Origin: Bryobacteraceae bacterium
Lineage (GTDB): Bacteria; Acidobacteriota; Terriglobia; Bryobacterales; Bryobacteraceae
DNA: 64,000 bases
Assembly (NCBI GenBank): GCA_019752335.1
Contig: JAIEMJ010000014.1
Location: 1 to 64,000 of the forward strand
Direction of reading: 5' to 3'
The translations under genes and the position numbers were made by a program. A model generated the notes under the pieces. That model made no database searches and had not been told where the DNA came from. It saw nothing but the letters and a program-made list of their open reading frames with translations. Of the stretch, positions 6,971 through 23,148 are shown one piece after another (positions within the stretch are counted from its first letter, which is position 1; the number at the start of each line of letters is the position of its first letter).

Positions 6971-8622
6971 CGCGCCGCCAGTTACTGTTCGCCGCCGCCG
7001 CGCCCAATCCGCCGTTGGGCTTCTCCTACACTGACGTCACCGGTAAGGCTGGCCTGCGCTTCCGGCATCATTCGGGCGCTTTTGGCGAGAAGTATCTGCC
7101 GGAGACGATGGGCCCTGGTTGTGCGTTTCTGGACTATGACCAGGACGGTTGGCCCGATATTCTGCTCCTGAACGGCAACGACTGGCCGGGCCACGCCCAG
7201 GTAGGGCGCCCTACGATGGCGCTGTACCGCAATAACCGCAACGGCACCTTTGCCGACGTCACCCGCGCGGCGGGGCTGGATTTTGAGATGTATGCGCTCG
7301 GCGTCGCCGTGGGCGACTTCGACAACGATGGCTATCCGGATTTATACATTACTGGCCTCGGCCAAAACCGGCTCTTACGCAACAACCGGCGTGGCGGTTT
7401 CGTCGATGTGACCAAGCCATCGGGCTTAGGCAATCGGCAAAGCTTTAGTACCTCCGCTTTGTGGTTCGACTATAACCGCGATGGCTTACTCGACTTATTC
7501 GTGTGTAACTACGTCCGCTGGACTCCGGCGACGGATGTGCGGTGTAGCCTGGACGGCAAGAGTAAGTCGTATTGCACGCCGGAAGCCTATCGCGGTTCCA
7601 CCTGTTGGCTCTTTCGCAATCGTGGCGACGGCACTTTTGAGGACGTTACCGCGACGAGTGGCATTTTTGACTCCACCTCAAAAGCCCTCGGCGCGGCCAT
7701 CTTGGATGACGATGAGGACGGTTGGCCGGATCTACTGGTCGCCAATGACACGACTCCGAATCGGCTTTACCGGAATCGCAGCAATGGCACTTTCGAGGAG
7801 ATCGGGCTGCGCGCGGGAGTCGCCTTTAGCGAGGATGGCAAAGCTCGCGCGGGCATGGGCGTCGCCGTGGGAGCCTTTGATGGCTCGGGTCGCCCCGGCC
7901 TGGCGATTACGAATTTCGACAACGAGATGACGGCCCTCTACCGGCGTTCGGCCGGTGGTCGCTATGAGGACGTCGCGGCGGCCACGGGTGTCGCGGCGAT
8001 TACGCGGAATACGCTCGGCTTTGGCTGCGAGTTTCTGGACGCTGACTTAGACGGCCGTCTCGACTTACTCATCGTTAACGGCCACATTGACGATACGGTG
8101 CGCAATGTCCGTCGCGAAGCCAGTTATGCGCAGCCTCCCCACTTACTCTGGAACGACGGGAAAGGCAAGTTTCGCGACGTGGCTCCGCAACTCGGCGCGC
8201 CATTTTACTTGCCCCGCGTCGGCCGCGGACTCGCCGTGGCCGATTTTGACCGCGACGGCGACCTCGACTTACTACTGACGACGAACGGCGGCGTGCCCGT
8301 CCTGCTGCGGCAAGACCTGCGCAACGGCCACCGTTCGATCCGGTTGCGGCTGCAGGGCAAGAAGAGTAACCGCGATGGGATTGGCGCCGTGGTGAAGTTG
8401 CTCGATGGCGGCGAAACGCAGTGGCGAATGGTCCATAGCGGCTCGAGCTACTTGTCGCAGTCCGAACTCGCCGTCACCTTCGGCGTGGGTCGCCGCGACC
8501 GGGTGGCGCGGGTCGTAATTCAATGGCCCAGCGGCCGGGTTGATGACCACAAGAACCTGGCCACGGGGCGCCAGTATTTGTGTGTGGAAGAGAGCGCCAT
8601 TCAGCCTGACCCGCTATCCTAA
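6967..8622 (+). CDS. CRTAC1 family exported repeat protein (FG-GAP/VCBS plus ASPIC-UnbV)
   Basis: A 551-residue protein with a GTG start overlapping the response-regulator stop (GTGA). It begins MTRRQLLFAAAA, a short Tat-like signal. At least six FG-GAP-type repeats follow, with calcium-binding-like loops such as DYDQDGWPD, DFDNDGYPD, DYNRDGLLD, DDDEDGWPD and DFDRDGDLD, forming a beta-propeller. The C-terminus (RDGIGAVVKLLDGG, IQWPSGRVD) is the ASPIC/UnbV domain. It is probably extracytoplasmic and may bind ligands or carbohydrate. Location directly after a two-component system suggests a regulated surface function. Leucine TTA codons are unusually common. Confidence 0.92.
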   Translation: MTRRQLLFAAAAPNPPLGFSYTDVTGKAGLRFRHHSGAFGEKYLPETMGPGCAFLDYDQDGWPDILLLNGNDWPGHAQVGRPTMALYRNNRNGTFADVTRAAGLDFEMYALGVAVGDFDNDGYPDLYITGLGQNRLLRNNRRGGFVDVTKPSGLGNRQSFSTSALWFDYNRDGLLDLFVCNYVRWTPATDVRCSLDGKSKSYCTPEAYRGSTCWLFRNRGDGTFEDVTATSGIFDSTSKALGAAILDDDEDGWPDLLVANDTTPNRLYRNRSNGTFEEIGLRAGVAFSEDGKARAGMGVAVGAFDGSGRPGLAITNFDNEMTALYRRSAGGRYEDVAAATGVAAITRNTLGFGCEFLDADLDGRLDLLIVNGHIDDTVRNVRREASYAQPPHLLWNDGKGKFRDVAPQLGAPFYLPRVGRGLAVADFDRDGDLDLLLTTNGGVPVLLRQDLRNGHRSIRLRLQGKKSNRDGIGAVVKLLDGGETQWRMVHSGSSYLSQSELAVTFGVGRRDRVARVVIQWPSGRVDDHKNLATGRQYLCVEESAIQPDPLS

Positions 8623-8626
8623 GAAC

Positions 8627-9907
8627 GTGAAGGTATTGGTAATTGGTGGCGGCGGACGGGAACATGCCTTGGCTTGGCGCTTGGCGCGGGGAGCCTCGAT
8701 CACGAGGGTGTATGTCACGCCGGGTAACCCCGGCATGGCGAACGTCGCTGAGTGCGTTCCGCTCGAAAACGCGACTCCCGAAGAGTATCTAGGCCTGGCC
8801 GAACGGCTCGGCGTCGACTTCACCGTCGTGGGTCCGGAAGCACCTTTGGTCGCCGGCGTGGTGGACCTCTTCCGGCAGTGCGGCAAGCCCATCGTGGGCC
8901 CCACGAAGGCCGCCGCGAACCTCGAAGGCAGCAAGGTATTTTCCAAGGAAATCATGAACTCGGCGGGCATTCCCACCGCCCGTTACACGATTGCCGAAAG
9001 CGAAGCGGAGGCCCTGGCCGCGTTGCCGCGCTTTGAACTGCCCGTCGTGCTGAAGGCAGACGGACTGGCGGCGGGCAAAGGCGTGATCGTTGCCAAGACC
9101 CGAGACGAAGCCAGCGACGGCGTCCGCGCGCTGTTTTCCGGCCAACTCGCCGGCGACGCGGGCCGCGTCGTGGTGATCGAGGACTTTCTGCCGGGCCGCG
9201 AGGTGAGCTTCATCGTCCTGACGGACGGCGAGACGGTGGTGCCGCTCGCGCCGACGCAGGACCACAAAGCCGTCCACGACGGTGACGAGGGCCCGAATAC
9301 CGGTGGCATGGGCGCCTTTTGCGCGGATAACATCCTTACCGGCGCTGAGACGCAAGAGGTGCTGGATCGCGTGATCGCGCCGACGATTCGCGCCATGGCC
9401 CAGCGCGGTACGCCGTTTTCCGGCTTCCTTTACGCCGGCCTGATGATGACCGAGAAGGGCATCCAGGTGCTGGAGTTCAACGCCCGCCTCGGTGATCCCG
9501 AGTGCCAGACGCTCATGCATCGCATGAACAGCGACTGGGGCGCCGTGTTATACCGGGCCGCGACGGGTCGGCTCGCGGGCGTCACCATTGGCTGGGATGC
9601 CGCGCCGAGCGTCTGCGTGGTGGCGGCGGCGCACGGTTATCCCGGCCAGGTTCGGACTGGCGACTCCATTTCTGGAGTCCGCGATGCGGAGGCTGGCGGC
9701 GCTGTTGTCTTCCAGGCGGGGACTCGCCTGAATGCGCAGGGGGGCCTCGTAACCGCCGGAGGCAGGGTGCTGGGGGTAACGGCGTCTGGGGTGGATCTGC
9801 GTGCGGCGATGAACCGGGCTTATTTGGGGATGGAGCAGATCCGCTTTGAGGGGATTCACTTCCGGCGCGATATCGGAGCCAAGGGGTTAGCTCGCCGTCC
9901 GGTGTAG
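8627..9907 (+). CDS. purD: Phosphoribosylamine-glycine ligase (GAR synthetase)
   Basis: A 426-residue ATP-grasp ligase joining glycine to phosphoribosylamine in the second step of purine synthesis. The frame is open upstream, but the GTG at 8627 gives MKVLVIGGGGREHALAW, the exact family start, 4 bases after the CRTAC1 stop. Further signatures are VTPGNPGM, VGPEAPLV, LKADGLAAGKGV, AQDHK-type PTQDHKAVHDGDEGPNTGGM and FNARLGDPE. Length is normal. It sits at the end of the Rrf2/two-component/CRTAC1 operon, an unusual place for a housekeeping enzyme. Its 3' end overlaps the convergent RES toxin gene by 21 bases. Confidence 0.97.
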   Translation: MKVLVIGGGGREHALAWRLARGASITRVYVTPGNPGMANVAECVPLENATPEEYLGLAERLGVDFTVVGPEAPLVAGVVDLFRQCGKPIVGPTKAAANLEGSKVFSKEIMNSAGIPTARYTIAESEAEALAALPRFELPVVLKADGLAAGKGVIVAKTRDEASDGVRALFSGQLAGDAGRVVVIEDFLPGREVSFIVLTDGETVVPLAPTQDHKAVHDGDEGPNTGGMGAFCADNILTGAETQEVLDRVIAPTIRAMAQRGTPFSGFLYAGLMMTEKGIQVLEFNARLGDPECQTLMHRMNSDWGAVLYRAATGRLAGVTIGWDAAPSVCVVAAAHGYPGQVRTGDSISGVRDAEAGGAVVFQAGTRLNAQGGLVTAGGRVLGVTASGVDLRAAMNRAYLGMEQIRFEGIHFRRDIGAKGLARRPV

Positions 9908-11039: not shown

Positions 11040-12611
11040 TTAGCGAAAGTGCCACCAAAGGGCGATGATCGCTGCTCCGGTGACTGCCGTGAGTGCGATA
11101 TCGAAGCGGTGGGCGGCGACGGCGCGCGTCGGGTCAAAAACGAGGCCGGTCAGGCGGGTGGTATCGGGAAGGCCCTCGAGCTTACTCACCGTGTACATCA
11201 GGGCAACGCAGAAGAAAAAGACGATGACACTGTAGTTGAGGAAGCTGAATTCGACCAGGGCATTCAGCGAGCCGAGGTCCCATTTGAGGGCGTTGTGGAG
11301 GATATCGAGCAGGAAGCGTCCGGCGCCGAGGAGTCCGCCGGTCACAAGGGTGGTGAAGGCGGCGCGCGCGGTGGCGCCTTTCCACAAGATGCCCACCAGG
11401 AAGGTGGCGGTGATCGGCGCGCCGACGTAGGCTTGCACACTCTGCAGATACTGGTAGATTTCGTTGTTCAAATAGCGAATGAAGGGGATCCACAGAATCG
11501 AGAGCACCACGATGGCGCCGGTGGCGTAGCGGCCCACGCGCACCAACTGGGCATCCGGCGCCGCTGGGCGGAGCTTTTTGTAGATGTCCATGGTGATCAG
11601 GGTCGAACAGGAGTTGAAGACGCTGGAGAGCGACGACATCAACGCGGCGAGCAACGCCGCCACCATCAGCCCCATCACGCCGGTGGGCAGCAGCCGCAAT
11701 ACCAGCAACGGGTAGGCGTTGTCGCCGGTGACTTCGGTGGGCCAGAGCGCTTTCGCGATCAGGCCGGGCAGCACCAGGATGAAGACGGGCAGAATCTTGA
11801 GGCTGGCGCAAAAAAAGGCGCCTTGGCGGGCGGCCTGCACGTTCTTCGCGGCGAGCGTCTTTTGCACGATCACCTGATCGGTACACCAATACCAGATGCC
11901 GAGGATCAGCGCGCCCAGCGTCGTGCCGATCCAGGGATACACCGGGTCACTCGCCGGACGAATCATATGGAAGTAATCGGGCGGCAGCGCGGTCCGCAGC
12001 CCCTCGAAGCCGCCGACCTTGTCGAGGCCGATCAGCGTCAGCACCACCGCGCCGAGTACCAGGAGCACGGCTTGGAAGAGGTCCGTGTAGATGACGGCGG
12101 CGAGTCCACCGGCGACGGTGTAGATGCCGGTGGCGATCACCAGCAGCAGCGCGGACGTCATATAGTCCCAGCCGAAGACTTCCCGAATCAGGATACCGCC
12201 GGCGAAGAGGGACACCGAAATCTTGGTGAAGACGTAGGCGAAGAGCGAAACGACGGTGAGGTACCAACGGCAGGCGGGGCTGAAGCGCTGTTCCAGAAAC
12301 TCCGGCATGGTGTAAACGCGGCTTTGCAGGTAGTGCGGCACGAAGAGCCAGCCGAGGATAAAGAGGCAGAAACTGGCGGACCATTCGTAGCAGCCCACGG
12401 CGAGTCCGGTGGAGGCTCCGGAGCCGGCCAGTCCGATGAAGTGTTCGCTCGAAATGTTGGTGGCGAAGAGCGAGGCGCCGATGGCGAACCAGCCCACTTG
12501 ATGGCCGGCGAGAAAGTACTCGCTGGCCGTCCGGCCGCCGCGCGAGTGATACCAGCCAATGGCGAAGACGATCAGAAAATAGACGACAATGATAGCGTTA
12601 TCCAGATTCAT
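11040..12611 (-). CDS. Sodium:solute symporter family transporter (SSS/SGLT-like)
   Basis: A 523-residue membrane protein with about 13-14 hydrophobic segments. Family hallmarks are SEYFLAGHQVGWFAIGASLFATN near the N-terminus, FAYVFTKISVSLFAGG, GGLAAVIYTDLFQAV and WYWCTDQVIVQKTLAAKNV, all typical of SGLT-like sodium/sugar symporters in Bacteroidetes, Planctomycetes and Acidobacteria. It is divergent from the sulfatase gene with only 15 bases between start codons, so both must share an overlapping control region. A role in uptake of sugars released by the neighbouring sulfatase is plausible but inferred. Confidence 0.9.
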   Translation of the reverse strand: MNLDNAIIVVYFLIVFAIGWYHSRGGRTASEYFLAGHQVGWFAIGASLFATNISSEHFIGLAGSGASTGLAVGCYEWSASFCLFILGWLFVPHYLQSRVYTMPEFLEQRFSPACRWYLTVVSLFAYVFTKISVSLFAGGILIREVFGWDYMTSALLLVIATGIYTVAGGLAAVIYTDLFQAVLLVLGAVVLTLIGLDKVGGFEGLRTALPPDYFHMIRPASDPVYPWIGTTLGALILGIWYWCTDQVIVQKTLAAKNVQAARQGAFFCASLKILPVFILVLPGLIAKALWPTEVTGDNAYPLLVLRLLPTGVMGLMVAALLAALMSSLSSVFNSCSTLITMDIYKKLRPAAPDAQLVRVGRYATGAIVVLSILWIPFIRYLNNEIYQYLQSVQAYVGAPITATFLVGILWKGATARAAFTTLVTGGLLGAGRFLLDILHNALKWDLGSLNALVEFSFLNYSVIVFFFCVALMYTVSKLEGLPDTTRLTGLVFDPTRAVAAHRFDIALTAVTGAAIIALWWHFR

Positions 12612-12626
12612 AGTTCACGCTAGTAT

Positions 12627-13970
12627 ATGCGACGACGCGACCTCCTCCTCACCCTCTCCGCCACGGCCTTCGCCCAGACGCCGCGCCGGCCCAATATCGT
12701 CTTGTTGTTGGCCGATGATCTCGGCTACGGCGACTTGGCCTGCTACGGGCAAAAGCAGATCTTGACTCCGAACCTGGACGCTTTAGCCGCGCAGGGAATG
12801 CGTTTCACGCAAGCTTACGCCGGGTCAACCGTGTGCGCGCCATCGCGCTGCTGCCTTTTCACCGGCAAGCACACCGGCCACGGACACATTCGCGGCAACA
12901 TGCCGACGGCGGTGGACTTGAGCCTGCGCGCCGAGGATGTAACGATCCCCGAGGTGCTCCGGCGCGCCGGCTATCGCACGGGCATATTCGGCAAGTGGGC
13001 GCTGGGGCAACTGGGGACGCCGGGCTACACGTTGGATAAGGGCTTCGATGAGTCGGCGACGTTTTTCAGCCAGACGGCAGCGCACAACTACTACCCGGAG
13101 CACATCGCGAGTGGCCGCCAGGTGCAATTGATGAAGGGCAACATGGGCACGCAGAAGCAGGACTACGCGCCAGACTACCTCACGCAACGCGCGCTGGACT
13201 TCGTGAAGAACACGCCCGCCGCGCAGCCCTTCTTCCTGTATTGGCCCACCACCATTCCGCACGCGAACAACGAAATGGGCCGCGACACGGGCAACGGCAT
13301 GGAAGTGCCGAACGACGCGCCCTACACCGCGAAACCCTGGCCGCAGGTGGAGAAGAACTTCGCCGCGATGGTGACGCGCCTGGATGCGGACCTCGGTAAG
13401 TTGCAAACCGTGCTGAAGCAGACCGGCCGGGACCAGGACACGCTGATCCTCTTCTCCAGCGATAACGGGCCCCATCGCGAAGGAGGCCACGATCCGAACT
13501 TCTTCGACTCCAATGGGCCCCTGCGCGGCATCAAGCGCGATCTCTACGAAGGCGGCATCCGTGTGCCGTTCCTGGCGCACTGGCCTGGGAAGATCCAGCC
13601 CGGCGTCAGCGACCAGCCGATCGCGTTCTGGGATCTCTTGCCGACTCTGGCCGAAGTGGCAGGGCAGCCGGCGCCTGCGGGAATCGATGGCCTTTCGGTG
13701 CTGCCAACGCTACTGGGCCGCGGCGTGCAGCGTCAGCACGATTACTTCTATTGGGAGTTCCACGAGCGCGGCTTCGCGCAGGCCATCCGGCAGAAGCAGT
13801 GGAAGGGCATCCGCCAGAGCGGCAAGAGTGAGATCGAGCTCTATGACCTTTCGCGCGACTTGGGCGAGACGAAGAATTTGGCCAGCGAGCAGCCGGAGAT
13901 GGCGCGCAAACTGCTCACCTTGATGACGCTGGCGCGCACGGAATCAAAGGAGTTCCCCATCAAGGCATGA
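12627..13970 (+). CDS. Exported sulfatase (arylsulfatase A type)
   Basis: A 447-residue protein starting MRRRDLLLTLSATAFAQ, a short Tat-like signal with a likely cut after AFAQ. The alkaline-phosphatase-superfamily core begins PNIVLLLADDLGYGDL, with the metal-binding Asp pair. The sulfatase signature is CAPSRCCLFTG with Cys70, the residue converted to formylglycine. Other active-site parts are GHIRGN, IFGKWALG and LFSSDNGPHREGG. It removes sulfate esters, probably from polysaccharide, in the periplasm or outside. Its stop overlaps the thiD start (ATGA). No maturase is seen in the window. Confidence 0.93.
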   Translation: MRRRDLLLTLSATAFAQTPRRPNIVLLLADDLGYGDLACYGQKQILTPNLDALAAQGMRFTQAYAGSTVCAPSRCCLFTGKHTGHGHIRGNMPTAVDLSLRAEDVTIPEVLRRAGYRTGIFGKWALGQLGTPGYTLDKGFDESATFFSQTAAHNYYPEHIASGRQVQLMKGNMGTQKQDYAPDYLTQRALDFVKNTPAAQPFFLYWPTTIPHANNEMGRDTGNGMEVPNDAPYTAKPWPQVEKNFAAMVTRLDADLGKLQTVLKQTGRDQDTLILFSSDNGPHREGGHDPNFFDSNGPLRGIKRDLYEGGIRVPFLAHWPGKIQPGVSDQPIAFWDLLPTLAEVAGQPAPAGIDGLSVLPTLLGRGVQRQHDYFYWEFHERGFAQAIRQKQWKGIRQSGKSEIELYDLSRDLGETKNLASEQPEMARKLLTLMTLARTESKEFPIKA

Positions 13971-14743
13971 TGCCCGTCGCCCTTACGATCGCGGGGTCCG
14001 ACCCTTCCGGCGGCGCCGGGATTCAGGCCGATCTCAAGACGTTTCATCAATTCGGCGTGTATGGCGAAGCGGCGATTACGCTGCTGACGGTGCAGAACAC
14101 GCGCGGCGTGACGGCGATCGAGATGCTGGCGCCGGACTTCGTGGCGGCGCAGATCCGTGCCGCCGCCAGCGACATTCCGCCGCAAGCGGTCAAGACCGGG
14201 GCCTTGGGTTCGCGGGCCATCGTGGAAGCCGTGGCCTACGAAGTGGCCTCGCTCCCGTGCCCGGTGGTGGTGGATCCGGTGATGATTTCGAAGCACGGCG
14301 CGCCGTTGATGTCGGCCGACGCGCGGCAGGCTTTGGTGACGCTGCTGCTGCCGCGGGCAACGCTGCTGACGCCGAATCTGCACGAGGCTGAGGCGATCAC
14401 GGGCCGGCCCGTGACGAATCTAGCGGAGATGCAGGAGGCGGCGCTGGCCTTGCTGACGCTGGGTGCGCGCGCCGTGCTGATCAAAGGTGGGCACCTCGAA
14501 GGCGCCGCGATTGACTTGCTGCACGACGGCCAGCAGGTGCGCACTTATCCGGCGCCCCGCTGCGAGACGGTGCACACGCACGGTACGGGTTGCACTTACT
14601 CGGCGGCGATCACGGCGCTCCTGGCGCGCGGTTTGTCGCTAGCCGACGCCCTACCGAGGGCCAAGCATTACATTACGGAAGCGATTCGGACGAATCCCGG
14701 GCTGGGGCAGGGGCAGGGTCCAGTGAATCACTTCGCCGTTTAG
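13967..14743 (+). CDS. thiD: Hydroxymethylpyrimidine/phosphomethylpyrimidine kinase
   Basis: A 258-residue ribokinase-fold kinase of thiamine synthesis that phosphorylates HMP and HMP-P. Signatures are ALTIAGSDPSGGAGIQADLK at the N-terminus, GVYGEAAITLLTVQNT, VKTGALGS, VVVDPVMISKHG, LTPNLHEAEAITG, VLIKGGHL and the anion-hole HTHGTGCTYSAAI. Length is normal. It overlaps the sulfatase stop by 4 bases. Its last 53 bases (14692-14744) are repeated almost exactly at 18052-18098, beyond the PadR-ADOP block. Confidence 0.96.
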   Translation: MMPVALTIAGSDPSGGAGIQADLKTFHQFGVYGEAAITLLTVQNTRGVTAIEMLAPDFVAAQIRAAASDIPPQAVKTGALGSRAIVEAVAYEVASLPCPVVVDPVMISKHGAPLMSADARQALVTLLLPRATLLTPNLHEAEAITGRPVTNLAEMQEAALALLTLGARAVLIKGGHLEGAAIDLLHDGQQVRTYPAPRCETVHTHGTGCTYSAAITALLARGLSLADALPRAKHYITEAIRTNPGLGQGQGPVNHFAV

Positions 14744-14744
14744 G
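14692..14744 (+). repeat. Left copy of direct repeat: thiD 3' end
   Basis: The last 52 bases of thiD plus one base recur at 18052-18098 in the same orientation. The right copy lacks 6 bases of a short internal GGGGCA repeat and has two substitutions. The two copies bracket the PadR-ADOP genes and the DUF1326 remnant. Confidence 0.9.
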
Positions 14745-14786
14745 CGCGAAAACCCCTCCTACTCGGCGGGAACTAGCGGTGTTAGT

Positions 14787-15149
14787 ATGGGTGGCATGTC
14801 TACCGTAGACAATCCACCTGAACGATTGGAGTTCCTGCAGGGCACGTTGGAGGTTCTCATTCTCCGCAGCCTGCAAATGGCGCCCAATCATGCCTTCGGA
14901 ATCGCCAAGTTTATCGAGCAGCAATCAGAAGAGGAGTTCACCGTGGACAACGGCACCCTGTATCCCGGATTGCAGCGGCTAGTGCAAAAGGGTTGGATCA
15001 CCGCCCAGTGGAAGACCTCGCCGAATGGCCGCAAAGCGAAGTACTACCGGCTTACTCCCGATGGGAGAAAACAACTGCTAGCGGCGACATCCCGCTGGCA
15101 GAGGTTCGTCGAGGCGATGTCCCGTGTGCTTGCGCCGGAGCCCGAATGA
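14787..15149 (+). CDS. PadR family transcriptional regulator
   Basis: A 120-residue winged-helix repressor; ATG at 14796 (MSTVDNPPERLEF) is an alternative start and fits the family better. PadR features are LQGTLEVLILRSLQ, a central FTVDNGTLYPGLQRLVQKGW recognition helix and wing, and KAKYYRLTPDGRKQL. Its stop overlaps the ADOP start (ATGA). In Acidobacteria PadR genes commonly precede ADOP permeases and are thought to regulate them. No clear Shine-Dalgarno sequence is seen. Confidence 0.93.
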   Translation: MGGMSTVDNPPERLEFLQGTLEVLILRSLQMAPNHAFGIAKFIEQQSEEEFTVDNGTLYPGLQRLVQKGWITAQWKTSPNGRKAKYYRLTPDGRKQLLAATSRWQRFVEAMSRVLAPEPE

Positions 15150-17779
15150 GTATCCGCGAACTATGGGCGAGAGCATGTGCCGTACTTGATCGCCGCCGCA
15201 ATCTCGATGATCTCCAAGAGGAGATTGAGGTCCATCTCGCAATGGCCATCGAAGAAGCCGGGGGTGCGAATGCGCATGCCGAAGAGGCCAGAAGGCGCTT
15301 TGGCAATCGCGCCGCGATCAGTGAATCCGCTTACGATGCTTGGTCTCTCGGAGCGGTCGAATCGTTTGCTAAGGATGTCCGGTACGCCGTCCGTGGAATG
15401 TTGCGCAACCCTGTGCCAACGGGAGTCGCGCTCCTATCCATTGCACTGGGCATTGGCGCAACATCTGTGGTCTTCACCGCCGTCAGGTCGGTTCTTCTTG
15501 AGCCACTGCCATACCAGCATCCTGAAGAGCTTGTACAGTTTCGCACCGAATATCCTCGCTTCCCAGAACAGCCTCGTGGTGATTGGATGTCCTGGGAGGA
15601 CGCCCAAGAGGTTCGCAGAAGAAACCGGACGCTTGAAGGCGTGGCCGTCTATCGCAACGCGTTCGTCGATCTGGCGAGCGGATCGGACCATCCCCCCGAG
15701 GCTCTTTATGGAGCGCGCGTGACGTCGAACCTATTCCCTCTCTTAGGCGTCACCCCGATGCTTGGCCGGGGTATTTTGCCGGAAGAAGACCAGCCGGGCC
15801 ACCCCGATGTGATTATCCTGAGCCATCAAGTATGGGTTCGCAGATTCAACTCGGACCCCAGCATCATCGGACGAGTCTTGACGGTGAACGGTCACGGCAG
15901 CAGGGTCATTGGCGTGATGGCTGCGGAGTTCAACTTCCCGATGCGCAGAACAGCGGTGCGCACTCCGTCACCAACCGTCGATTTCTGGGCTCCTCTCGAA
16001 GTTGCCAGAGCGGGTGGCCATAGCGCCGTGGCGAGGTTGAAACAGGGAGTCACCCTGGCGCAGGCGCGACAAGATCTCGTCTCGATCGGCGATAGCCTCG
16101 CCGTCGAGTTCCCAGCGACCAACAGGGATCGAGTTTTGCAATTGAACTTCGTTAGTGAACGGGTTGCCGGAAACGCCAAATCCAGCCTCTATCTATTGCT
16201 TGCGGCTTCGGTCCTCTTCATGTTGATCGGCTGCTCCAATGTCGCGAACCTCTTGCTAGCGCGAGGGCATGGCCGCCAAAAGGAGATCGCGCTACGCCTC
16301 GCTCTGGGCGCTGGCTCAAGAAGAATACTGAGGCAAAGCTTTACGGAGAGCTGCGTCTTGGCCGTCATGGGAGGGTTAGCGGGATATCTCGTGACTGTCA
16401 TGGCCTGGCAGATTCTCCCCGCACTAGCACCCGCCGGTATCCCCCGCCTTGCTTTTGCCCGCCCGGATACCACCGTATTGGTATTCTCGATCGCATTGGC
16501 CGTTCTCAATGGCATTCTCTTCGGGCTCGTTCCCGCTTTGCGCGCCATACGTAGTGAAAGCGCGAACGCAGGTGGGTTTGGAGCGCGCGGCATCGCGGGC
16601 GGAAATGACGGGACGCGCTCGCTTCTGGTCGCGGCCGAAGTCGCGCTTACGGTGACGCTGGTTGTGCTTGGTGGCCAATTGTTGGGCGCCTTCTCCCGGC
16701 TGGTGGTAACCGATCCGGGTTTCGACTCAGACCACGTCCTCGCCTCCGTAATACTGCCCTCCGCGGAACGTTATCCAGATGCCGGAAAGCGCGGCGACTT
16801 ATACCGGAAGATCCTCCAATCGGTTCGCGAGCTTCCTGGCGTCGAGAGCGCGGGAGCCGTGGATGCCCTGCCGTTTAGCGGTGAGAACAACGGAGCATTG
16901 GTCACCACGACAGACGCCTCCTCCGCGAAAGATGTTACCGCGGAGATCGACACCACGGGGGGCGAATACCTGCAAACCCTTGGTCTTCGATTGCTAGAAG
17001 GCCGCTACTTCCACCCTCATGAGATCGTCTCATCCAACGAGTCCGCCATTGTCAGTACAGTCCTGGCTAGCCGTTTATGGCCTGGATCGAGCGCCATCGG
17101 GCGGCGGATTTGCCTCAATTGCCAGCCTGGACAAACACCAGTGTGGAAGCGAGTCGTGGGTGTAGTGTCCGACGCCAAACACGCAGCGTTGAACGAGCCT
17201 GAGAAAGGCGCGGTCTATCTCGCGGCGGGGGCGATGGAGCGCTCTGCGTTCGTTGTGGTTCGGACGCGGCGATCAGTGGGAGAGGTTGAGCGGGCTATCC
17301 GTCGCGCTGTTTCCGCCATCGACGCGAACCAAGCTGTATTCCTCGTCGCCCCACTTAGAAGCTTCATTGCCGATTCTGTGGCGGATCAACGCTTTGTGCT
17401 GATTCTGATCTTCATCGCTGGCTGCCTGGCATTGGTGCTGTCGGCGGCGGGCATATATGGTGTGGTGTCCTATTCCACATCGCGCCGAACGGCGGAAATC
17501 GGAATTCGAATGGCCATCGGCGCGACTCCGAACGCCGTCCATTGGCTCGTTTTTCGTCAGGGATTTGGTCCTGCGGCAGTAGGTCTGGCGATTGGTATGG
17601 CTCTAACGATTGGGTTTCTGATCCTGCTGCGGGGGGTGCTTCCCGGGCTTGACCAAAGTTACGTCGACTATGCCCTGGCCGCGGTCGGGATGGTGACGAC
17701 TACGACAGCGGCAGCGTGCTGGTTTCCGGCTCGGAAGGCCATCAAGATCGATCCGGCTTTAGCCCTGAGGCATGATTAG
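15146..17779 (+). CDS. ADOP-family ABC transporter permease (MacB-like core plus FtsX)
   Basis: An 877-residue permease. The ATG at 15146, overlapping the PadR stop, gives MSIRELWARACAVLDRRRNL, the usual start of acidobacterial duplicated orphan permeases, though the frame is open upstream. Order: cytoplasmic N-terminal helix region (1-75), first membrane helix near 95-115, MacB-like periplasmic core, FtsX block near 345-470, second periplasmic core, and a final FtsX block (about 745-877) with TAEIGIRMAIGATP. No ATPase gene is adjacent, which is normal for this family. The cargo is unknown. Codon and base composition look less GC-biased than the flanking genes, consistent with a later arrival. 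Confidence 0.92.
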   Translation: MSIRELWARACAVLDRRRNLDDLQEEIEVHLAMAIEEAGGANAHAEEARRRFGNRAAISESAYDAWSLGAVESFAKDVRYAVRGMLRNPVPTGVALLSIALGIGATSVVFTAVRSVLLEPLPYQHPEELVQFRTEYPRFPEQPRGDWMSWEDAQEVRRRNRTLEGVAVYRNAFVDLASGSDHPPEALYGARVTSNLFPLLGVTPMLGRGILPEEDQPGHPDVIILSHQVWVRRFNSDPSIIGRVLTVNGHGSRVIGVMAAEFNFPMRRTAVRTPSPTVDFWAPLEVARAGGHSAVARLKQGVTLAQARQDLVSIGDSLAVEFPATNRDRVLQLNFVSERVAGNAKSSLYLLLAASVLFMLIGCSNVANLLLARGHGRQKEIALRLALGAGSRRILRQSFTESCVLAVMGGLAGYLVTVMAWQILPALAPAGIPRLAFARPDTTVLVFSIALAVLNGILFGLVPALRAIRSESANAGGFGARGIAGGNDGTRSLLVAAEVALTVTLVVLGGQLLGAFSRLVVTDPGFDSDHVLASVILPSAERYPDAGKRGDLYRKILQSVRELPGVESAGAVDALPFSGENNGALVTTTDASSAKDVTAEIDTTGGEYLQTLGLRLLEGRYFHPHEIVSSNESAIVSTVLASRLWPGSSAIGRRICLNCQPGQTPVWKRVVGVVSDAKHAALNEPEKGAVYLAAGAMERSAFVVVRTRRSVGEVERAIRRAVSAIDANQAVFLVAPLRSFIADSVADQRFVLILIFIAGCLALVLSAAGIYGVVSYSTSRRTAEIGIRMAIGATPNAVHWLVFRQGFGPAAVGLAIGMALTIGFLILLRGVLPGLDQSYVDYALAAVGMVTTTTAAACWFPARKAIKIDPALALRHD

Positions 17780-17856
17780 GCCCGTTTATGCGAAGCATCT
17801 GCCAACCGTGTTCCAGCGCATTGGCGCTCCGATGAGTCGCTAAGTGTCTGTAATTC

Positions 17857-18050
17857 GTCGTTCCAATGAAAGCTTCCGGCGAAGGCGGAGCGCTTCAGCG
17901 GCGAGGACCACGTGGCGTCGCGGCCTTGGACCTTGAAGTCGTGGGCGAGGGCATAGTCGGCCATAACGCGCTCGACCTTAGTGAAACTTCTTCGTTGGAG
18001 CACTGCCCTCAAGTTCGCCACGAAGGAGTGCAGACTATTCTTCTCGAATT
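17857..18050 (-). pseudogene. Decayed 3' fragment of a DUF1326-family gene
   Basis: The stretch is about 85-90% identical, with two internal deletions, to the 3' part of the intact gene at 19592-20260 and has the same orientation. The minus-strand translation still reads MADYALAHDFK and ATWSSPLKRSAFAGSFHWND, matching the C-terminus of that protein. The 5' part of the gene is missing. It abuts the second copy of the thiD tail, which marks a duplication junction. Confidence 0.88.
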
Positions 18051-18051
18051 T

Positions 18052-18098
18052 GAATCCCAGGCTGGGGCAGGGTCCGGTGAATCACTTCGCCGTTTAGG
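18052..18098 (+). repeat. Right copy of direct repeat: thiD 3' end
   Basis: This is a near-identical, same-orientation copy of 14692-14744 including the thiD stop region. Its last bases also form the stop codon of the convergent PhoD-like gene. That suggests thiD and the phosphatase were once directly adjacent with overlapping stops. Confidence 0.9.
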
Positions 18099-19509
18099 TT
18101 TTGGCGAAGCTGTATTCGTAGACCGTGGCGCCGTGAACGTCGCGATGGCGCAAACGTAGGGCTTCGCGCGAAGCGTTGATAGTGAGGTAGCCGCCCAGGA
18201 CGCGGTGGAACTTGTGGCGGAGCGGATCGAGGCCCGGCGTGCCGCCGGCGTGCAGGTCCGACGCGGGACCGCAGCCGAACTCGTGCAGACCGGTTTCCGG
18301 GTCCACCGAATGATACTGCCAGTGGCGGTCGCCGCAAACGGAGATGGCCTGGCCGCCCAGTTCGTTGCGCAGAAAACGGCGGATTTCGCGGCTTTCGTGC
18401 GCGAAACCGGCGTTGGCGTGATTGTCGTTCTTCTTCTGGCGATCTGGCCCCACGATGGGGTTGGGATTGACGATCACCTTCCAGGTGGCGCGGCTGGCGG
18501 CCAGTGAAGCAACGAGCCACTGCTTCTGATCGTCACCCCAGATGGTCTTGTTGGGCCCGTCCGGATCGGTGTTGGCGGAGCGATAGTCGCGGGACTCGGG
18601 AAGCCAAAGTTCGAGATCCGCGCCCACGCGGACCGTGCGGTACAGGGGCGCGTTGCCCGGCGGCACGGGCACTTGTTCGCGGAAAATGCGCTGGCCCTTG
18701 ACGAAGGTGAAGGGATTCATCTTGGGTTCGTTTCGCGACGGCCAGGAGTCGTCGGAGAGTACGTCGTGGTCGTCCTTCTGCCAATAGCAGCCTACCTGAC
18801 GAAGGCAGTTCACCAGGGTAGGGAGGCTATACATGCGCTGCCAGTGATAGCGGGCCAAGGCCTCGCTGTTCACGATGGGGTCCTCGTTGTCGTAATAGAC
18901 GTTGTCGCCGCAACTCAGCAGGAACTGGGGCGCTTCGCGCTGGATGCTCTCATAGATGTGGAAGCCGTCGGGGCGATCCATGTGGCAATACATCTGGCAA
19001 CTCAGTAAGGCGACATGCGCGGGCACACTGGCGTTGGCCAGCGGCAAGCTCCGGAAGGCGCCGGTGAGTTCGCCATCCACCCGGCCATTGCGGGTCGCGC
19101 GCGTTTCCACGGCGTACGTGTAGGCGGCGCCGGGGCGCAAGCCGTTAATCTCCACTTGCGTGGCAAAGTCCGCAGAGTCATTCACGTCGAGCCACGCCGA
19201 CGCGCCGGACTTCGGGCCACGATACACGACGCGGACGTAGCCCGGGGCGCCCATGGCGGCGCCTTCGAGCGTCGCGGGCTCGATGCCGGGGGCGAGCAGC
19301 TTCGCCTCCGGGCCCTGGCCCCGGCGCACGATGCCGTTGGCGAGCCGGGTGGATGCGGCGGTGCGGCGCAGCCAGAAGCGTGCGGAAACCGGCGTCATCT
19401 CGCCGACCTTGCAGCCGGTGGACTGATGCGTTTCGCCCGGCACGGCGGCGGCATAGGCGGGAAGGCCGAGCGAGAGCGCGGCGAGTTGGCGTCGGCTGAG
19501 CGGTGTCAT
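18094..19509 (-). CDS. PhoD-like alkaline phosphatase / phosphodiesterase, Tat-exported
   Basis: A 471-residue protein starting MTPLSRRQLAALSLGLPAYA, a Tat signal as expected for PhoD. An N-terminal fibronectin-like domain (STGCKVGEMTPVSARFWLR, LRPGAAYTYAVETR) precedes the metallophosphatase core with LLSCQMY, LLSCGDNVYYDNED, QKDDHDVLSDD and SVCGDRHWQYHSVD, which supply the Asp, Asn and His metal ligands. It hydrolyses phosphate esters outside the cytoplasm. Its stop overlaps the duplicated thiD tail. Confidence 0.9.
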   Translation of the reverse strand: MTPLSRRQLAALSLGLPAYAAAVPGETHQSTGCKVGEMTPVSARFWLRRTAASTRLANGIVRRGQGPEAKLLAPGIEPATLEGAAMGAPGYVRVVYRGPKSGASAWLDVNDSADFATQVEINGLRPGAAYTYAVETRATRNGRVDGELTGAFRSLPLANASVPAHVALLSCQMYCHMDRPDGFHIYESIQREAPQFLLSCGDNVYYDNEDPIVNSEALARYHWQRMYSLPTLVNCLRQVGCYWQKDDHDVLSDDSWPSRNEPKMNPFTFVKGQRIFREQVPVPPGNAPLYRTVRVGADLELWLPESRDYRSANTDPDGPNKTIWGDDQKQWLVASLAASRATWKVIVNPNPIVGPDRQKKNDNHANAGFAHESREIRRFLRNELGGQAISVCGDRHWQYHSVDPETGLHEFGCGPASDLHAGGTPGLDPLRHKFHRVLGGYLTINASREALRLRHRDVHGATVYEYSFAKT

Positions 19510-19543
19510 CCGCCGATTAGCCTACCACAGCCAAACGAAAAAA

Positions 19544-19566
19544 AGCCCCACCGGGAGGGTGGGGCT
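19544..19566 (-). terminator. Rho-independent terminator
   Basis: A perfect 9-bp stem (19544-19552 with 19558-19566) and 5-base loop is followed on the minus strand by seven T residues (from the A run at 19538-19544). It lies 26 bases past the stop of the DUF1326 gene and before the start of the PhoD-like gene, so it ends the former transcript. Confidence 0.85.
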
Positions 19567-19591
19567 CTTTCCTTCGCTACGAACAGAGACG

Positions 19592-20260
19592 TTAGTCGTT
19601 CAAATGGAAGCTGCCGACAAAGGCGGAGCGCTTCAGCGGCGAGGACCAGGTGGCGTCGAGGCCTTGGCCCTTGAAATCGTGGGCGAGCGCGTAGCCGGCC
19701 ATCGCATGGTCCACTTTGGTGAGCGGCGCGTACCAGACCTCTTCGTTGGAGCAATGATGATCGCCCTCGCCGATGGGGCGCGTTTCGATGCTGGCCAGAT
19801 CGCCGGCTTTCAGGTTCGCCTTCACCGAGTGCAGATTGTTCTTGTCGAATTCGAGGGTCACCGGAGCCACTTCGACCCGGACCACCTTGCTGAAGAGGTC
19901 GCCGCCCATGCGCTTGGCGAAGGCTTGCAAAGCTACGCGCTGCGGGCCAGTGGCCTTCTGGTCCACAATCAGCACGGAGTGTACCGGGTAAGCGGAGACG
20001 ATCACGTCGCCGAGGGTGGAGTTCGCGCGAACGACGCCCACGACGCCCAAGCCCGAGAGGTCGACGCCGTCGAACGCGCCTTTCTCAATGCGCCAGCCCA
20101 TCACGGCCAGGTTACCGAGCATGTTCACTTCGGAATTGGCGTAACAAGGACCCGTGTAGATGTCGGCGTTGCGCGCCTCGACATAGGTTCCTTCAACAGT
20201 GTTATTTGGCGCGGCGATAGCCAGGCCGGAAAAAAGAGCGAAAGCGGCAAAAGTCTTCAT
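19592..20260 (-). CDS. Secreted DUF1326-family protein
   Basis: A 222-residue protein with signal peptide MKTFAAFALFSGLAIAA. The mature part begins NNTVEGTYVEARNADIYTGPC and continues with LAVMGWRIEKGAFDGVDLSG and LGVVGVVRANSTLGDV, matching DUF1326, whose function is unknown. It keeps only two of the usual several cysteines (GPCYAN and HHCSNEE). A terminator follows. A decayed partial copy lies at 17857-18050. Confidence 0.75.
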   Translation of the reverse strand: MKTFAAFALFSGLAIAAPNNTVEGTYVEARNADIYTGPCYANSEVNMLGNLAVMGWRIEKGAFDGVDLSGLGVVGVVRANSTLGDVIVSAYPVHSVLIVDQKATGPQRVALQAFAKRMGGDLFSKVVRVEVAPVTLEFDKNNLHSVKANLKAGDLASIETRPIGEGDHHCSNEEVWYAPLTKVDHAMAGYALAHDFKGQGLDATWSSPLKRSAFVGSFHLND

Positions 20261-20286
20261 GGCGTAGCGGATGCTCCTGATGAATA

Positions 20287-21567
20287 TTATGTCACGAGTG
20301 CGGCCAGGATGATGGCTTCGTCGGCGGGAGCCACCGTGCGCAGGTCCAGGACGACGGCGCCGCTTTCGATGCGGGCGATGATTGGCGTCGCGTGGCCGCG
20401 GAGTTGACGCTCCAGCTTATGCGCAGGCCCCGGCAGGCGCACGAGCCAGGCGGGCAGAGTCTGGTCCGGCGTGGAGCCGCCGCCCGCGACGGACTCGCCT
20501 GCCACGGCTACCGCGCCCTCCACTTGGGCGGCGAAGGCTTCGGCGCGTTGGCGCAGTTCGGCAGCGCTCGCGCGGATCATGCGCAGCGTAGGAACCTCGT
20601 CGTAGCGTTCCAGCAGCAGCAGCCTCAGCGTGTGTTCGAGCGCCTGCACGATGAGCTTATCGGGCCGGAAGGCGCGGTACATCGGGTTGCGCCGGCAGCG
20701 TTCGACGAGCGCCGGGTCGCCGGCGATGATGCCGGTTTGCGGGCCGCCGAGGAGTTTGTCGCAAGAGAAAGAGACGAGCGCGACACCGGCCGCGAGGCTT
20801 TCGCCCACCAGCGGCTCGCTGATGCCGTAGGGCCGCAGATCCACCAGGCAGCCGCTGCCGAGGTCTTCGTAGACCGGCACGCCGAGCGTCGAGAGGTCCG
20901 CGAGCGCGGGCTTCTGCGTGAAGCCGGAGACGTGGAAGTTGCTCGGATGAACGCGCAGAATTAGCCGCGTGCGCTCGTTGATGGCGCGGCGATAGTCTTC
21001 GAGCGTCGTGCGATTCGTCGTGCCCACTTCACGCAGGATCGCGCCCGAACGCTCCATGATGTCGGGGATCCGGAAGCCATCGCCGATCTCGATCAATTCG
21101 CCCCGGGAGACGATCACTTCGTGGCCGGCGGCGAGTTCCTGCAGCACTAAGTAAGTGGCGGCGGCATTATTGTTGACCGCGATGGCGGGTACGCCGAGTA
21201 AGTGCTGGAGTAAGTGCGAATAGTGTAAGTCGCGCTTACCGCGGCGGCCCTGCGCGAGGTCGTATTCGAGATTGGAGTAACCGTCGAGCGGAGTAAATCC
21301 GGCCAGCGCCGCGCGGCCGAGGTTGGTATGCAGCACGACGCCGGTGGCGTTGATGACGCGCCGCAGGCTCGGCGCTTCAAGCGCCAGAAGACGGGCCCTT
21401 ACGGCCTCCACTAAGTCGGGCGCCGGTTGGCCCGCGCGCAGTGCTTCGCGGGCGGTTTGCAGGGTTTGGCGAATCTGGGCGACCACCAAACCGTGGGGAA
21501 AACGGCCGGGCGGCAGTGCGAGCCGCCCCAGCAGTTGATCGACGGAAGGAAGCGCGGAGAGGTCCAC
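20287..21567 (-). CDS. selA: L-seryl-tRNA(Sec) selenium transferase
   Basis: A PLP enzyme that converts Ser-tRNA(Sec) to Sec-tRNA(Sec). Motifs are VINATGVVLHTNLGRAAL, AVNNNAAATYLVL, ELIEIGDGFRIP, EVGTTNRT, YEDLGSGCLVDL and the PLP-lysine loop SFSCDKLLGGPQTGII. The frame stays open to 21981, but that part overlaps the CDGSH gene; the GTG at 21567 (VDLSALPSVDQLLGRL) is the family-like start, giving 426 residues, slightly short. Its start is 8 bases past the CDGSH stop, so the two are probably co-transcribed. No selB, selD or tRNA(Sec) was seen here. Confidence 0.92.
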   Translation of the reverse strand: MDLSALPSVDQLLGRLALPPGRFPHGLVVAQIRQTLQTAREALRAGQPAPDLVEAVRARLLALEAPSLRRVINATGVVLHTNLGRAALAGFTPLDGYSNLEYDLAQGRRGKRDLHYSHLLQHLLGVPAIAVNNNAAATYLVLQELAAGHEVIVSRGELIEIGDGFRIPDIMERSGAILREVGTTNRTTLEDYRRAINERTRLILRVHPSNFHVSGFTQKPALADLSTLGVPVYEDLGSGCLVDLRPYGISEPLVGESLAAGVALVSFSCDKLLGGPQTGIIAGDPALVERCRRNPMYRAFRPDKLIVQALEHTLRLLLLERYDEVPTLRMIRASAAELRQRAEAFAAQVEGAVAVAGESVAGGGSTPDQTLPAWLVRLPGPAHKLERQLRGHATPIIARIESGAVVLDLRTVAPADEAIILAALVT

Positions 21568-21574
21568 GAGACTC

Positions 21575-21805
21575 TTAGACTTTGGGCTTGGGCGGAGGAA
21601 GATCGCGCGCGGGACAGGTGGATTGCCAGCCTTGCTTGGCGTGGCTGCCATCGCAGAAGGGCTTGTTTTCGCTGAGTCCGCAGCGGCAAAGGCCGATGGT
21701 GGTGCGGCCGCCCAGGCCAAACTCCTTGCCCTCGGCGTCATGAATCGTGAAGTCGCCTTCGATGCGAAGGGGACCGTTGTTGAAGACGGATACTTTAACT
21801 GCCAT
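21575..21805 (-). CDS. CDGSH-type iron-sulfur protein
   Basis: A 76-residue protein starting MAVKVSVFNNGPLRI; a further-upstream ATG at 21850 exists but lacks support. It contains a single CDGSH motif in GLCRCGLSENKPFCDGSHAK, with three Cys and one His as 2Fe-2S ligands, preceded by GPLRIEGDFTIHDAEG as in bacterial CDGSH proteins. It probably acts in redox or Fe-S handling in the cytoplasm. It immediately precedes selA on the same strand. Confidence 0.9.
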   Translation of the reverse strand: MAVKVSVFNNGPLRIEGDFTIHDAEGKEFGLGGRTTIGLCRCGLSENKPFCDGSHAKQGWQSTCPARDLPPPKPKV

Positions 21806-21867
21806 ATGCTCTCTAGAATGACAGATTGCCCGAGCCTCCTGGGCGCGCAACCGCTAGAATGGTAGGA

Positions 21868-23148
21868 ATGCAGCGGTGGACGATACTCTGGCTTGGGCTT
21901 GCGGGCGTGGCCGGCGCGCAGACGCTGGACGAAATCGATGTCGCCGAGTCGATGAAGCAGATTCGCGCCAAGGTGAATCATGACCTGAATCGCCTACCCA
22001 ACTACACCTGCACCGAAACTATTGAACGATCCGTGCAGGAGCCGCCGTCGAAGCACTTTGTCTTGCAGGATCTGATCCGTCTTGAAGTGGCGCTAGTGGA
22101 TCGCGCGGAGATCTTCGCTTGGCCTGGGTCGCGCGAGTTTCAGAGCTCGCATTTGCGGGACTTGGTGCCCGGCGGGGCGATCGGCAATGGCAGCTTCGCG
22201 CTCCACGCGAAGAGCGTCTTCGATGGACGAGCCGCCGCGATTGAGCGCGCCGGCGAGACGAAGCTGGGCGACCGCAGGGTGATGGAGTATCGCTATACCG
22301 TGCCCCGTAAGCTGAGCCGCTTCGCTCTCCGCCACGGGGACCGCGAAGCCAATATTGGCTACGGCGGCAGCTTCTACATTGACCAGGAGAATGGCTCCCT
22401 GGTGCGCCTGATCGTCCGCGCCAACGACATTCCGCAGGAATTGTCGATTCCCGCCGAGCAGGAGATTCTCGACTATCAGCAGGTGCGTTTGGGCGAGGAT
22501 GATTTCCTGCTACCGAAGAGCAGCGAGATGCGGATGACCAGCGCGGACGGTTCCGTCAGTTTGAACAAAACCGCGTTCACCGCCTGCCGGCAGTATTCCA
22601 CCGAGTCCACGCTCATCTTCACTGACCCCACGGAGACGCCGGGCGCCGGGCCCGTGCCCAACGAGATACGCGATGTACCCGTGGGCTTGAAGATGGAAGT
22701 ACGGCTGCTGACGCCGTTGGTGTGGGCGAAGTCCGCCGTGGGGGATCCGCTGACGGCGCAGGTACGGCGCGACGTGAAGGTAGATAAACGGGTCGTGATT
22801 CCGAAGGGTAGCCAGTTGAAGGGCCGCTTGATTTGCCTGGAGCGGCGAGCGAATCCCTCGGGCGGCAGCGCTTACCTGGTCGGCGTGCGATTTGAGGAGT
22901 TACTCGCGAGCCGCTGGCGTGGCGCGGTGAAGACGCAGTTGGTGGAAGCGCTGCCCATGCCGGAGCTAATGCCGATGCGCCGTGGGCCCATGCCGCGCAA
23001 CGCGCCCACGCCCGTGATTACCGGCGCGCATCCCAGTGGCCAGAATCTCTTTGTCGTTTACAATGAACCTAGGTTCACCGACGGGCTCGATCTCGTCTTA
23101 GGGACGATTGGTGTGGGTGAACCCTCATCGGAAAGCCAGAAAAAATGA
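21868..23148 (+). CDS. Secreted protein of unknown function
   Basis: A 426-residue protein; ATG at 21868 with AGGA just upstream gives MQRWTILWLGLAGVAGAQ, a good signal peptide (the frame is open to 21826). The first 250 residues, with NYTCTETIER and an outer-membrane lipoprotein-like fold (VMEYRYTVPR, FYIDQENGSLVRL, LPKSSEMRM), resemble secreted acidobacterial proteins with no known role. The part from about residue 280 (DVPVGLKMEVRLLTPLVWAK, VVIPKGSQLKGRL) resembles a TrbI/VirB10-like beta-barrel motif. Its stop overlaps the GH88 start by 4 bases. Confidence 0.75.
   Translation: MQRWTILWLGLAGVAGAQTLDEIDVAESMKQIRAKVNHDLNRLPNYTCTETIERSVQEPPSKHFVLQDLIRLEVALVDRAEIFAWPGSREFQSSHLRDLVPGGAIGNGSFALHAKSVFDGRAAAIERAGETKLGDRRVMEYRYTVPRKLSRFALRHGDREANIGYGGSFYIDQENGSLVRLIVRANDIPQELSIPAEQEILDYQQVRLGEDDFLLPKSSEMRMTSADGSVSLNKTAFTACRQYSTESTLIFTDPTETPGAGPVPNEIRDVPVGLKMEVRLLTPLVWAKSAVGDPLTAQVRRDVKVDKRVVIPKGSQLKGRLICLERRANPSGGSAYLVGVRFEELLASRWRGAVKTQLVEALPMPELMPMRRGPMPRNAPTPVITGAHPSGQNLFVVYNEPRFTDGLDLVLGTIGVGEPSSESQKK

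What the first reader, a model, noticed from the sequence alone, without database searches (positions are those of the whole stretch)
14692..18098. PadR-ADOP block bounded by a duplicated thiD tail and a decayed DUF1326 fragment
The thiD 3' end (14692-14744) recurs at 18052-18098 in direct orientation. Immediately before the second copy is a decayed 3' piece of the DUF1326 gene whose intact copy lies at 19592-20260. The order fits a tandem duplication of [thiD tail - phosphatase - part of DUF1326] with junction at 18051, followed by replacement of the first phosphatase copy by PadR-ADOP. The second tail also provides the phosphatase stop, so thiD and that gene were probably once directly convergent.
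Basis: partly seen in the sequence, partly recalled or inferred. Interest (0 to 1): 0.72.

Follow-up and report, generated by a model that had tools for sequence, protein, structure and literature searches.

The report
Duplication scar around a transporter gene
A bacterium, probably an acidobacterium, carries the worn scar of an old DNA duplication around a regulator-transporter gene pair that it probably got from a relative; it is an example of ordinary genome rearrangement, not a new system.

Summary
The thiD end (14692-14744) recurs at 18052-18098 (45/47 identical, one 6-bp gap), and 17854-18051 is a decayed 3' piece of DUF1326 (162/198 identical, two internal gaps). Both score far above shuffled sequence. 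The copies complement each other (whole thiD plus partial DUF1326, then partial thiD plus whole DUF1326), the signature of a tandem duplication joined at 18051/18052. The phosphatase stop codon lies in the second thiD tail.
Identity stops one base past the thiD stop and at the DUF1326 stop, so each copy looks like a different filling between the same two genes. I favour, narrowly, recombination between two versions of the locus (thiD/PadR-ADOP/DUF1326 and thiD/phoD/DUF1326) over duplication plus replacement.
PadR-ADOP is not a recent internal copy (best paralogue 35%); its nearest relatives found, 75% and 69%, lie in other genera in other surroundings. In the only congener held, thiD, phoD and DUF1326 lie on three contigs, so the order of events is not settled. 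Ordinary genome evolution.

The parts
13967..14743 (+). thiD (hydroxymethylpyrimidine/phosphomethylpyrimidine kinase), complete
   Evidence: Pfam PF08543 2.5e-91; NCBIfam TIGR00097 above cut-off
14692..14744 (+). thiD tail, copy 1 (last 52 bases of thiD plus one)
   Evidence: 45/47 identical to 18052-18098 with one 6-bp gap
14745..14777 (.). spacer of unknown origin between the thiD end and the conserved start region of the PadR-ADOP block
   Evidence: no significant match in phoD or its spacer; no match in the other fetched loci beyond copies of the window itself
14796..15149 (+). padR_acidobact regulator (ATG 14796); inverted repeat GTCTAC-C-GTAGAC at 14798-14810 over the start
   Evidence: TIGR03433 130.3 bits, cut-off 101.8; 87% identical to G125 and G139
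15146..17779 (+). ADOP-family duplicated permease, 877 aa, intact
   Evidence: TIGR03434 769.2 bits, cut-off 622.3; MacB_PCD and FtsX, two stretches each
17780..17853 (.). spacer of unknown origin between ADOP and the DUF1326 piece
   Evidence: not similar to 19510-19591 (p=0.19) or to phoD (p=0.47)
17854..18051 (-). decayed 3' piece of DUF1326 (stop lost, two internal deletions)
   Evidence: 162/198 identical to 19592-19854; hit of the DUF1326 protein at 17857-17985, 79% identity
18051..18053 (.). chimeric junction DUF1326 piece / thiD tail; CGA in both parents, TGA here
18052..18098 (+). thiD tail, copy 2; holds the phoD stop codon
18094..19509 (-). PhoD-like phosphatase, 471 aa; one residue shorter at the C-terminus than 5 of 7 relatives printed
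   Evidence: PF09423 4.8e-26
19510..19591 (.). phoD upstream region and a terminator-like hairpin (19544-19566)
19592..20260 (-). DUF1326 gene, intact copy
   Evidence: PF07040 3.5e-14; 92% identical to G001

Best explanation
14692-20260 is an old merodiploid scar. Two versions of one locus lie side by side: version A (thiD, PadR-ADOP, 3' part of DUF1326) and version B (3' tip of thiD, phoD, whole DUF1326). Shown: the partial copies, their complementarity, the chimeric junction at 18051/18052, and a PadR-ADOP pair that is far from all paralogues of the genome. Inferred: version A came in on DNA from a related cell in which PadR-ADOP had inserted between thiD and DUF1326. It recombined with the resident thiD/phoD/DUF1326 by ordinary homology on the thiD side and by illegitimate joining at a 3-bp microhomology (CGA) between donor DUF1326 and resident thiD on the other. 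The leftover DUF1326 piece then decayed; the leftover thiD tail survives as the end of phoD. PadR-ADOP presumably works as other such pairs do, a PadR repressor controlling a MacB-like permease without its own ATPase. I see no function for the repeats beyond supplying phoD's stop.
For: Repeat alignments and shuffle controls. Identity of the copies ends one base past the thiD stop and begins at the DUF1326 stop, with unrelated fillings and no detectable phoD or spacer remnant in copy 1. Unequal divergence: 36/198 in the DUF1326 piece, 2/47 in the thiD tail, p=0.014. Third-position share of DUF1326-piece changes 7 of 13, p=0.10, at most a hint that some arose while the gene was still used. At sites where G000 and G001 differ, the piece follows the intact G000 gene 12 times, G001 4 times and neither 3 times, p=0.038 (an earlier count with flanking bases gave 12 to 6, p=0.12). 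PadR-ADOP looks foreign: best own paralogue 35%, G125 75% and G139 69% while thiD of those genomes is 64% and 66%; DNA similarity to G125 spans 14785-17778, just the gene pair; tree support 1.0 for focal+G125+G139.
Against: No genome with version A alone or version B alone was found. G125 and G139 show no thiD or DUF1326 in the 18 kb and 14 kb fetched around their PadR-ADOP (in G139 the contig starts 215 bp before padR). In G001 thiD, phoD and DUF1326 are on three contigs, so thiD-DUF1326 adjacency is not shown to be ancestral. The divergence contrast rests on 47 bp, and other column sets give only p=0.05 and 0.11; the tail may also be held by its overlap with phoD. Spacer turnover could mimic clean edges at stop codons. 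Lateral origin has thiD as its only yardstick.
Confidence: 0.45

Rival explanations
1. One reading: the resident thiD/phoD/DUF1326 stretch duplicated in tandem by illegitimate recombination at CGA, then PadR-ADOP arrived and replaced the first phoD with its spacer.
For: Explains the complementary partial copies and the junction and needs no unseen second strain. The redundant first phoD would be a safe landing place.
Against: No detectable phoD or spacer remnant. Requires loss edges one base past the thiD stop and, without selection, at the DUF1326 stop. The two copied pieces differ in divergence, p=0.014, though weaker with other column sets.
Confidence: 0.35
2. One complex event: during replication-based repair the fork left thiD, copied PadR-ADOP from incoming DNA, then the DUF1326 3' end, then re-entered at the thiD tail (template switching).
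For: Short microhomology at the one junction that can be checked.
Against: Three switches are needed, two of them at stop codons by chance. The parents of the other two junctions are unknown, so they cannot be checked.
Confidence: 0.12
3. Chance similarity or an assembly error.
For: The genome is a 55-contig assembly; reads could not be examined.
Against: Scores far beyond shuffles; the copies differ by substitutions and gaps, which a simple assembly repeat would not produce; the phoD frame ends within the second tail.
Confidence: 0.03

Closest known systems
Transformation-generated merodiploids (Streptococcus pneumoniae, PMC3784515; abstract and passages seen)
   Same: A tandem duplication made on uptake of DNA, with two different alleles of the duplicated stretch kept side by side and a hybrid junction between them
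   Different: Those duplications are about 100-900 kb, joined within IS repeats and made in the laboratory; here the copies span 3.4 and 1.8 kb, are joined at about 3 bp, are old, and the route is inferred from sequence only
Homology-facilitated illegitimate recombination (mechanism recalled; the term was a search term, of whose listed papers I opened only PMC3784515)
   Same: Homology on one side, short microhomology on the other, foreign DNA gained
   Different: The donor version has not been found; the homologous side cannot be tested without close relatives
ADOP duplicated permease TIGR03434 with padR_acidobact TIGR03433
   Same: Both proteins exceed the curated cut-offs; overlapping gene pair; many paralogues in the genome
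   Different: Nothing notable about the proteins was seen; only the scar around them is uncommon
Paralogue expansion in Candidatus Solibacter usitatus (PMC3174227; passages seen)
   Same: Acidobacterium in which divergent paralogues were ascribed to ancient transfer and duplication
   Different: Genome-wide treatment; in its main text 'PadR' and 'MacB' occur 0 times

Membership tests
ADOP family permease (TIGR03434) | score above the curated cut-off over the whole profile | tested here: met
   769.2 bits, cut-off 622.3, profile 2-803/803
ADOP family permease (TIGR03434) | two MacB_PCD and two FtsX stretches (recalled feature) | tested here: met
   two stretches each
ADOP family permease (TIGR03434) | orphan: no ABC ATPase gene alongside (recalled feature) | tested here: met
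   immediate neighbours are thiD, padR, the DUF1326 piece and phoD
padR_acidobact (TIGR03433) | score above the cut-off; gene directly before an ADOP gene (second part recalled) | tested here: met
   130.3 bits, cut-off 101.8; genes overlap at 15146-15149
Partial tandem duplication | two direct partial copies that complement each other, with one chimeric junction | tested here: met
Partial tandem duplication | interior of the unit present in both copies, or remnants of it | tested here: not met
   no phoD or spacer similarity in 14744-14795 or 17780-17853
Partial tandem duplication | both copied pieces equally diverged | tested here: inconclusive
   2/47 against 36/198, p=0.014; p=0.05 and 0.11 with other column sets
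Homology-facilitated illegitimate recombination / transformation merodiploid | donor-type locus exists in a related strain | tested here: inconclusive
   none seen; the ADOP was sought in 237 family genomes (top 3 candidates per genome scored), of which only one is a congener
Homology-facilitated illegitimate recombination / transformation merodiploid | junction at short microhomology | tested here: inconclusive
   CGA in both parents but TGA at the junction, so one later change must be assumed; 3 bp alone is weak
Homology-facilitated illegitimate recombination / transformation merodiploid | cell takes up DNA | not tested
   competence genes not searched

The most novel reading that the evidence does not exclude
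Convergent gene ends such as thiD/DUF1326 act as landing sites where Solibacter-type acidobacteria exchange whole regulator-transporter pairs as alternative fillings. Scars like this one would then record how these genomes gain their many PadR-ADOP genes: by lateral exchange with microhomology joining, not by copying within the genome.
Probability: 0.12. Interest if true: 0.5.

Novelty: new member of a known kind. Interest (0 to 1): 0.25.

Why it matters
This genome holds dozens of ADOP-like genes (46 matches), and three paper searches turned up nothing specific on how such genes multiply. Here the newcomer is clearly not a recent internal copy and the join is still readable. It does not change any known mechanism.

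Tried and rejected
Search for a general rule: 31 other ADOP loci of the genome were compared left flank against right flank. One (L245) has a direct repeat above 50 bits (51.8; the focal one scores 62.6). At the loose level of 28 bits 15 of 31 loci have a hit against 8 of 36 random window positions (Fisher p=0.04), but above 35 bits it is 4 of 31 against 3 of 36, and three random positions reach 46.4 bits. The controls come from this window only and several flanks were cut by contig ends (L248, L249, L265). I do not take this as showing that duplicated flanks are a habit of PadR-ADOP genes, nor as excluding it.

ADOP linked to a DUF1326 elsewhere: in L125 (G173) a convergent DUF1326 match begins about 75 bp after the ADOP match, as here. 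It is only 32% identical to the window's DUF1326 protein, while the window's piece is 162/198 identical in DNA to the resident gene, so it is not the source.

Reverse synteny: the genes next to DUF1326, thiD and phoD in G001 were looked for in G000. The DUF1326-side block lies at C15:101182-105881, the thiD-side block has one 65% partial match, and of the phoD-side block only short matches besides phoD itself were found. This shows reshuffling but does not polarise it.

Donor beyond the family: of 399 genomes drawn evenly from the class, 7 (all of this family, the window's own included) reach E<=1e-240, none closer than G125 or G139 (top 2 candidates per genome scored). RNA families: in 12500-22000 only a sub-threshold nematode snoRNA match. 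Papers: 'acidobacteri' with 'duplicated orphan permease' gave 1 paper, on Dyadobacter; at least two of ADOP, PadR and acidobacter as whole words gave 2, both unrelated by title. These papers were seen as listings only.

Full report
Observation. The thiD end at 14692-14744 and the stretch 18052-18098 align with 45 of 47 identical bases and one 6-bp gap. The stretch 17854-18051 aligns to the 3' part of the DUF1326 gene (19592-19854) with 162 of 198 identical columns and two internal gaps (13 and 50 columns). Against 500 Markov-shuffled targets each, the scores are 73 (shuffle maximum 28) and 168 (shuffle maximum 35). Gene identities are confirmed by Pfam and NCBIfam: thiD, padR_acidobact, ADOP, PhoD-like, DUF1326, then selA (DUF1326 and selA by Pfam only, PhoD-like below the NCBIfam cut-off). 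The phoD stop codon lies within the second thiD tail. phoD ends one residue earlier than in 5 of 7 relatives printed; its stop and part of its last codon come from the tail.

Anatomy. Read left to right: whole thiD; PadR-ADOP; a 74-bp spacer; a decayed DUF1326 3' piece; a thiD tail; phoD (reverse strand); a spacer with a strong terminator-like hairpin; whole DUF1326. The two partial copies complement each other, so a tandem duplication with junction 18051/18052 is the natural reading. At the junction both parents carry CGA and the present sequence is TGA, which fits a 3-bp microhomology followed by one change.

What fills the two copies. The thiD tails agree up to TTTAGG, one base past the stop, and then continue into unrelated sequence: the PadR-ADOP start region in copy 1, phoD in copy 2. 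On the other side the DUF1326 piece and the intact gene agree from the stop codon inward, and beyond the stop the spacers are not detectably related (local alignment of 17780-17853 with 19510-19591, p=0.19; with phoD, p=0.47; anchored alignment, p=0.46; the left spacer 14744-14795 with the phoD end, p=0.63). So no trace of phoD was found in copy 1. The DUF1326 piece is a pseudogene, so selection does not explain an edge at its stop. That edge is easiest to understand if the rearrangement next to it happened while that copy of DUF1326 was whole.

Age and origin of the pieces. With the G001 gene as reference, the piece carries 29 private differences. Where G000 and G001 differ it shares the G000 state at 12 sites, the G001 state at 4 and neither at 3 (binomial p=0.038; a first count that included flanking bases gave 12 to 6, p=0.12). 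So it more likely left the G000 line after the split from G001. It differs from the intact gene at 36/198 sites while the thiD tails differ at 2/47 (Fisher p=0.014). With the local-alignment counts the same contrast gives p=0.11 (20/150) or 0.05 (30/195), so it is suggestive only. In the first 111 aligned bases, 7 of 13 differences are at third positions (p=0.10).

PadR-ADOP is an outsider. The best paralogue in the genome is 35% identical (46 matches, itself included). In 237 genomes of the family, 23 have a match at E<=1e-200, the window's own included. The two closest are G125 (75%) and G139 (69%), in other genera; the congener G001 has none at that threshold (the top 3 candidates per genome were scored). 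PadR is 87% identical in both, whereas thiD of G125 and G139 is 64% and 66% identical. DNA similarity to G125 covers 14785-17778, just the pair. In G125 the pair lies between a TPR-type gene and an FG-GAP-type gene, and in G139, where the contig starts 215 bp before padR, it is followed by a rhomboid-like gene (these names are my reading of the ORFs). A tree of 49 ADOP proteins puts the window's ADOP with those two at support 1.0, away from all 29 paralogues included. The 19 members from other genomes were picked for similarity, so only the distance from the paralogues is informative.

Relatives. G001, the only congener held, has SSF-sulfatase-thiD on one contig, phoD on a second and selA-DUF1326 on a third. 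Its similarity to this part of the window stops at 14733 and resumes at 19592, with phoD alone (18182-19528) between. Among 35 non-window thiD loci (29 of those returned, 6; flanks up to 1.5 kb) and 19 non-window DUF1326 loci, none has another gene of this set (thiD, DUF1326, phoD, padR, ADOP) beside it at E<=1e-6. Among 19 non-window phoD loci (six; 13 of the 80 fetched; at least one contig is in both sets) none has thiD, DUF1326, padR or ADOP nearby. So the arrangement was seen in this genome only, and its ancestor cannot be read off.

Interpretation. The common core (partial tandem duplication with a chimeric junction, plus a laterally acquired PadR-ADOP) I hold at about 0.85. Between ways of making it, I prefer two versions of the locus joined by recombination with homology on one side and microhomology on the other (0.45) to duplication followed by replacement (0.35). 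The reasons are the edges at both stop codons, the missing phoD remnant and the uneven divergence. Transformation-generated merodiploids that keep two alleles side by side are documented in Streptococcus pneumoniae (PMC3784515, abstract and passages), though with IS repeats at the joins and much larger units. Whether this bacterium takes up DNA was not tested.

Function. I see no function for the repeats beyond supplying the phoD stop. The PadR-ADOP pair is intact and presumably works like others. An inverted repeat GTCTAC-C-GTAGAC over the padR start codon is kept in G139 and, with the centre base changed, in G125, consistent with autoregulation; this is inference.

Verdict. Real, well read by the first stage, and ordinary in kind: a scar of genome rearrangement. 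Interest 0.25.

Noticed in passing
G000 contig C26:74653-95629 (L283, L284), outside the window: Seven copies of a roughly 125-bp element (core GTCTAGTTCGCGGTTCCCTGCGCGACT), all in one orientation, at 74653, 75888, 79103, 80021, 81764, 92908 and 95603. They bound blocks of one to about a dozen ORFs, including two ADOP genes, on a contig with conjugation-type genes (TrbI, TrbE/VirB4-like, T2SSE). The 27-base core with up to 3 mismatches is in 4 of 101 genomes, this one included, reversed-pattern control zero; a shorter 17-base core with 2 mismatches gave 5 hits against 4 for its control. No Rfam match. Looks cassette-like; no integrase seen in a Pfam scan of 10 C26 proteins or a simple motif search of the C26 ORFs.
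   Followed up: partly
G033 contig C61:3519-6218 (L287, L290): Two copies of the same element about 2.7 kb apart, one about 200 bp from a divergently placed PadR-ADOP pair (ADOP match partial, locus ends). G001 has single copies on C12 (a PadR-like match about 1.2 kb away) and C85, G005 one on C9.
   Followed up: partly
window 14796-14813: Inverted repeat ATGTCTACCGTAGACAAT over the padR start codon, conserved in G139 and, with the centre base changed, in G125. Several other PadR-ADOP pairs of the genome show different palindromes just before padR, judged by eye: candidate operators for autoregulation.
   Followed up: partly
L136 (G001:C10) 8473-8629: The G001 thiD reading frame runs about 50 codons past the NHF near the usual end into unrelated sequence, so the thiD 3' end may be a rearrangement point in both congeners.
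   Followed up: no
G000 C15:101182-105881 against G001 C91: The block after DUF1326 in G001 (hydrolase, peptidase, signal peptidase, DUF885-like) sits on another contig in G000, with an M61-like peptidase convergent to it: a synteny break at the DUF1326 end (names are my reading).
   Followed up: partly
window 17776-18021 (-): The decayed DUF1326 piece keeps an open frame (81 aa from a GTG) that runs past the lost stop to the end of ADOP.
   Followed up: no
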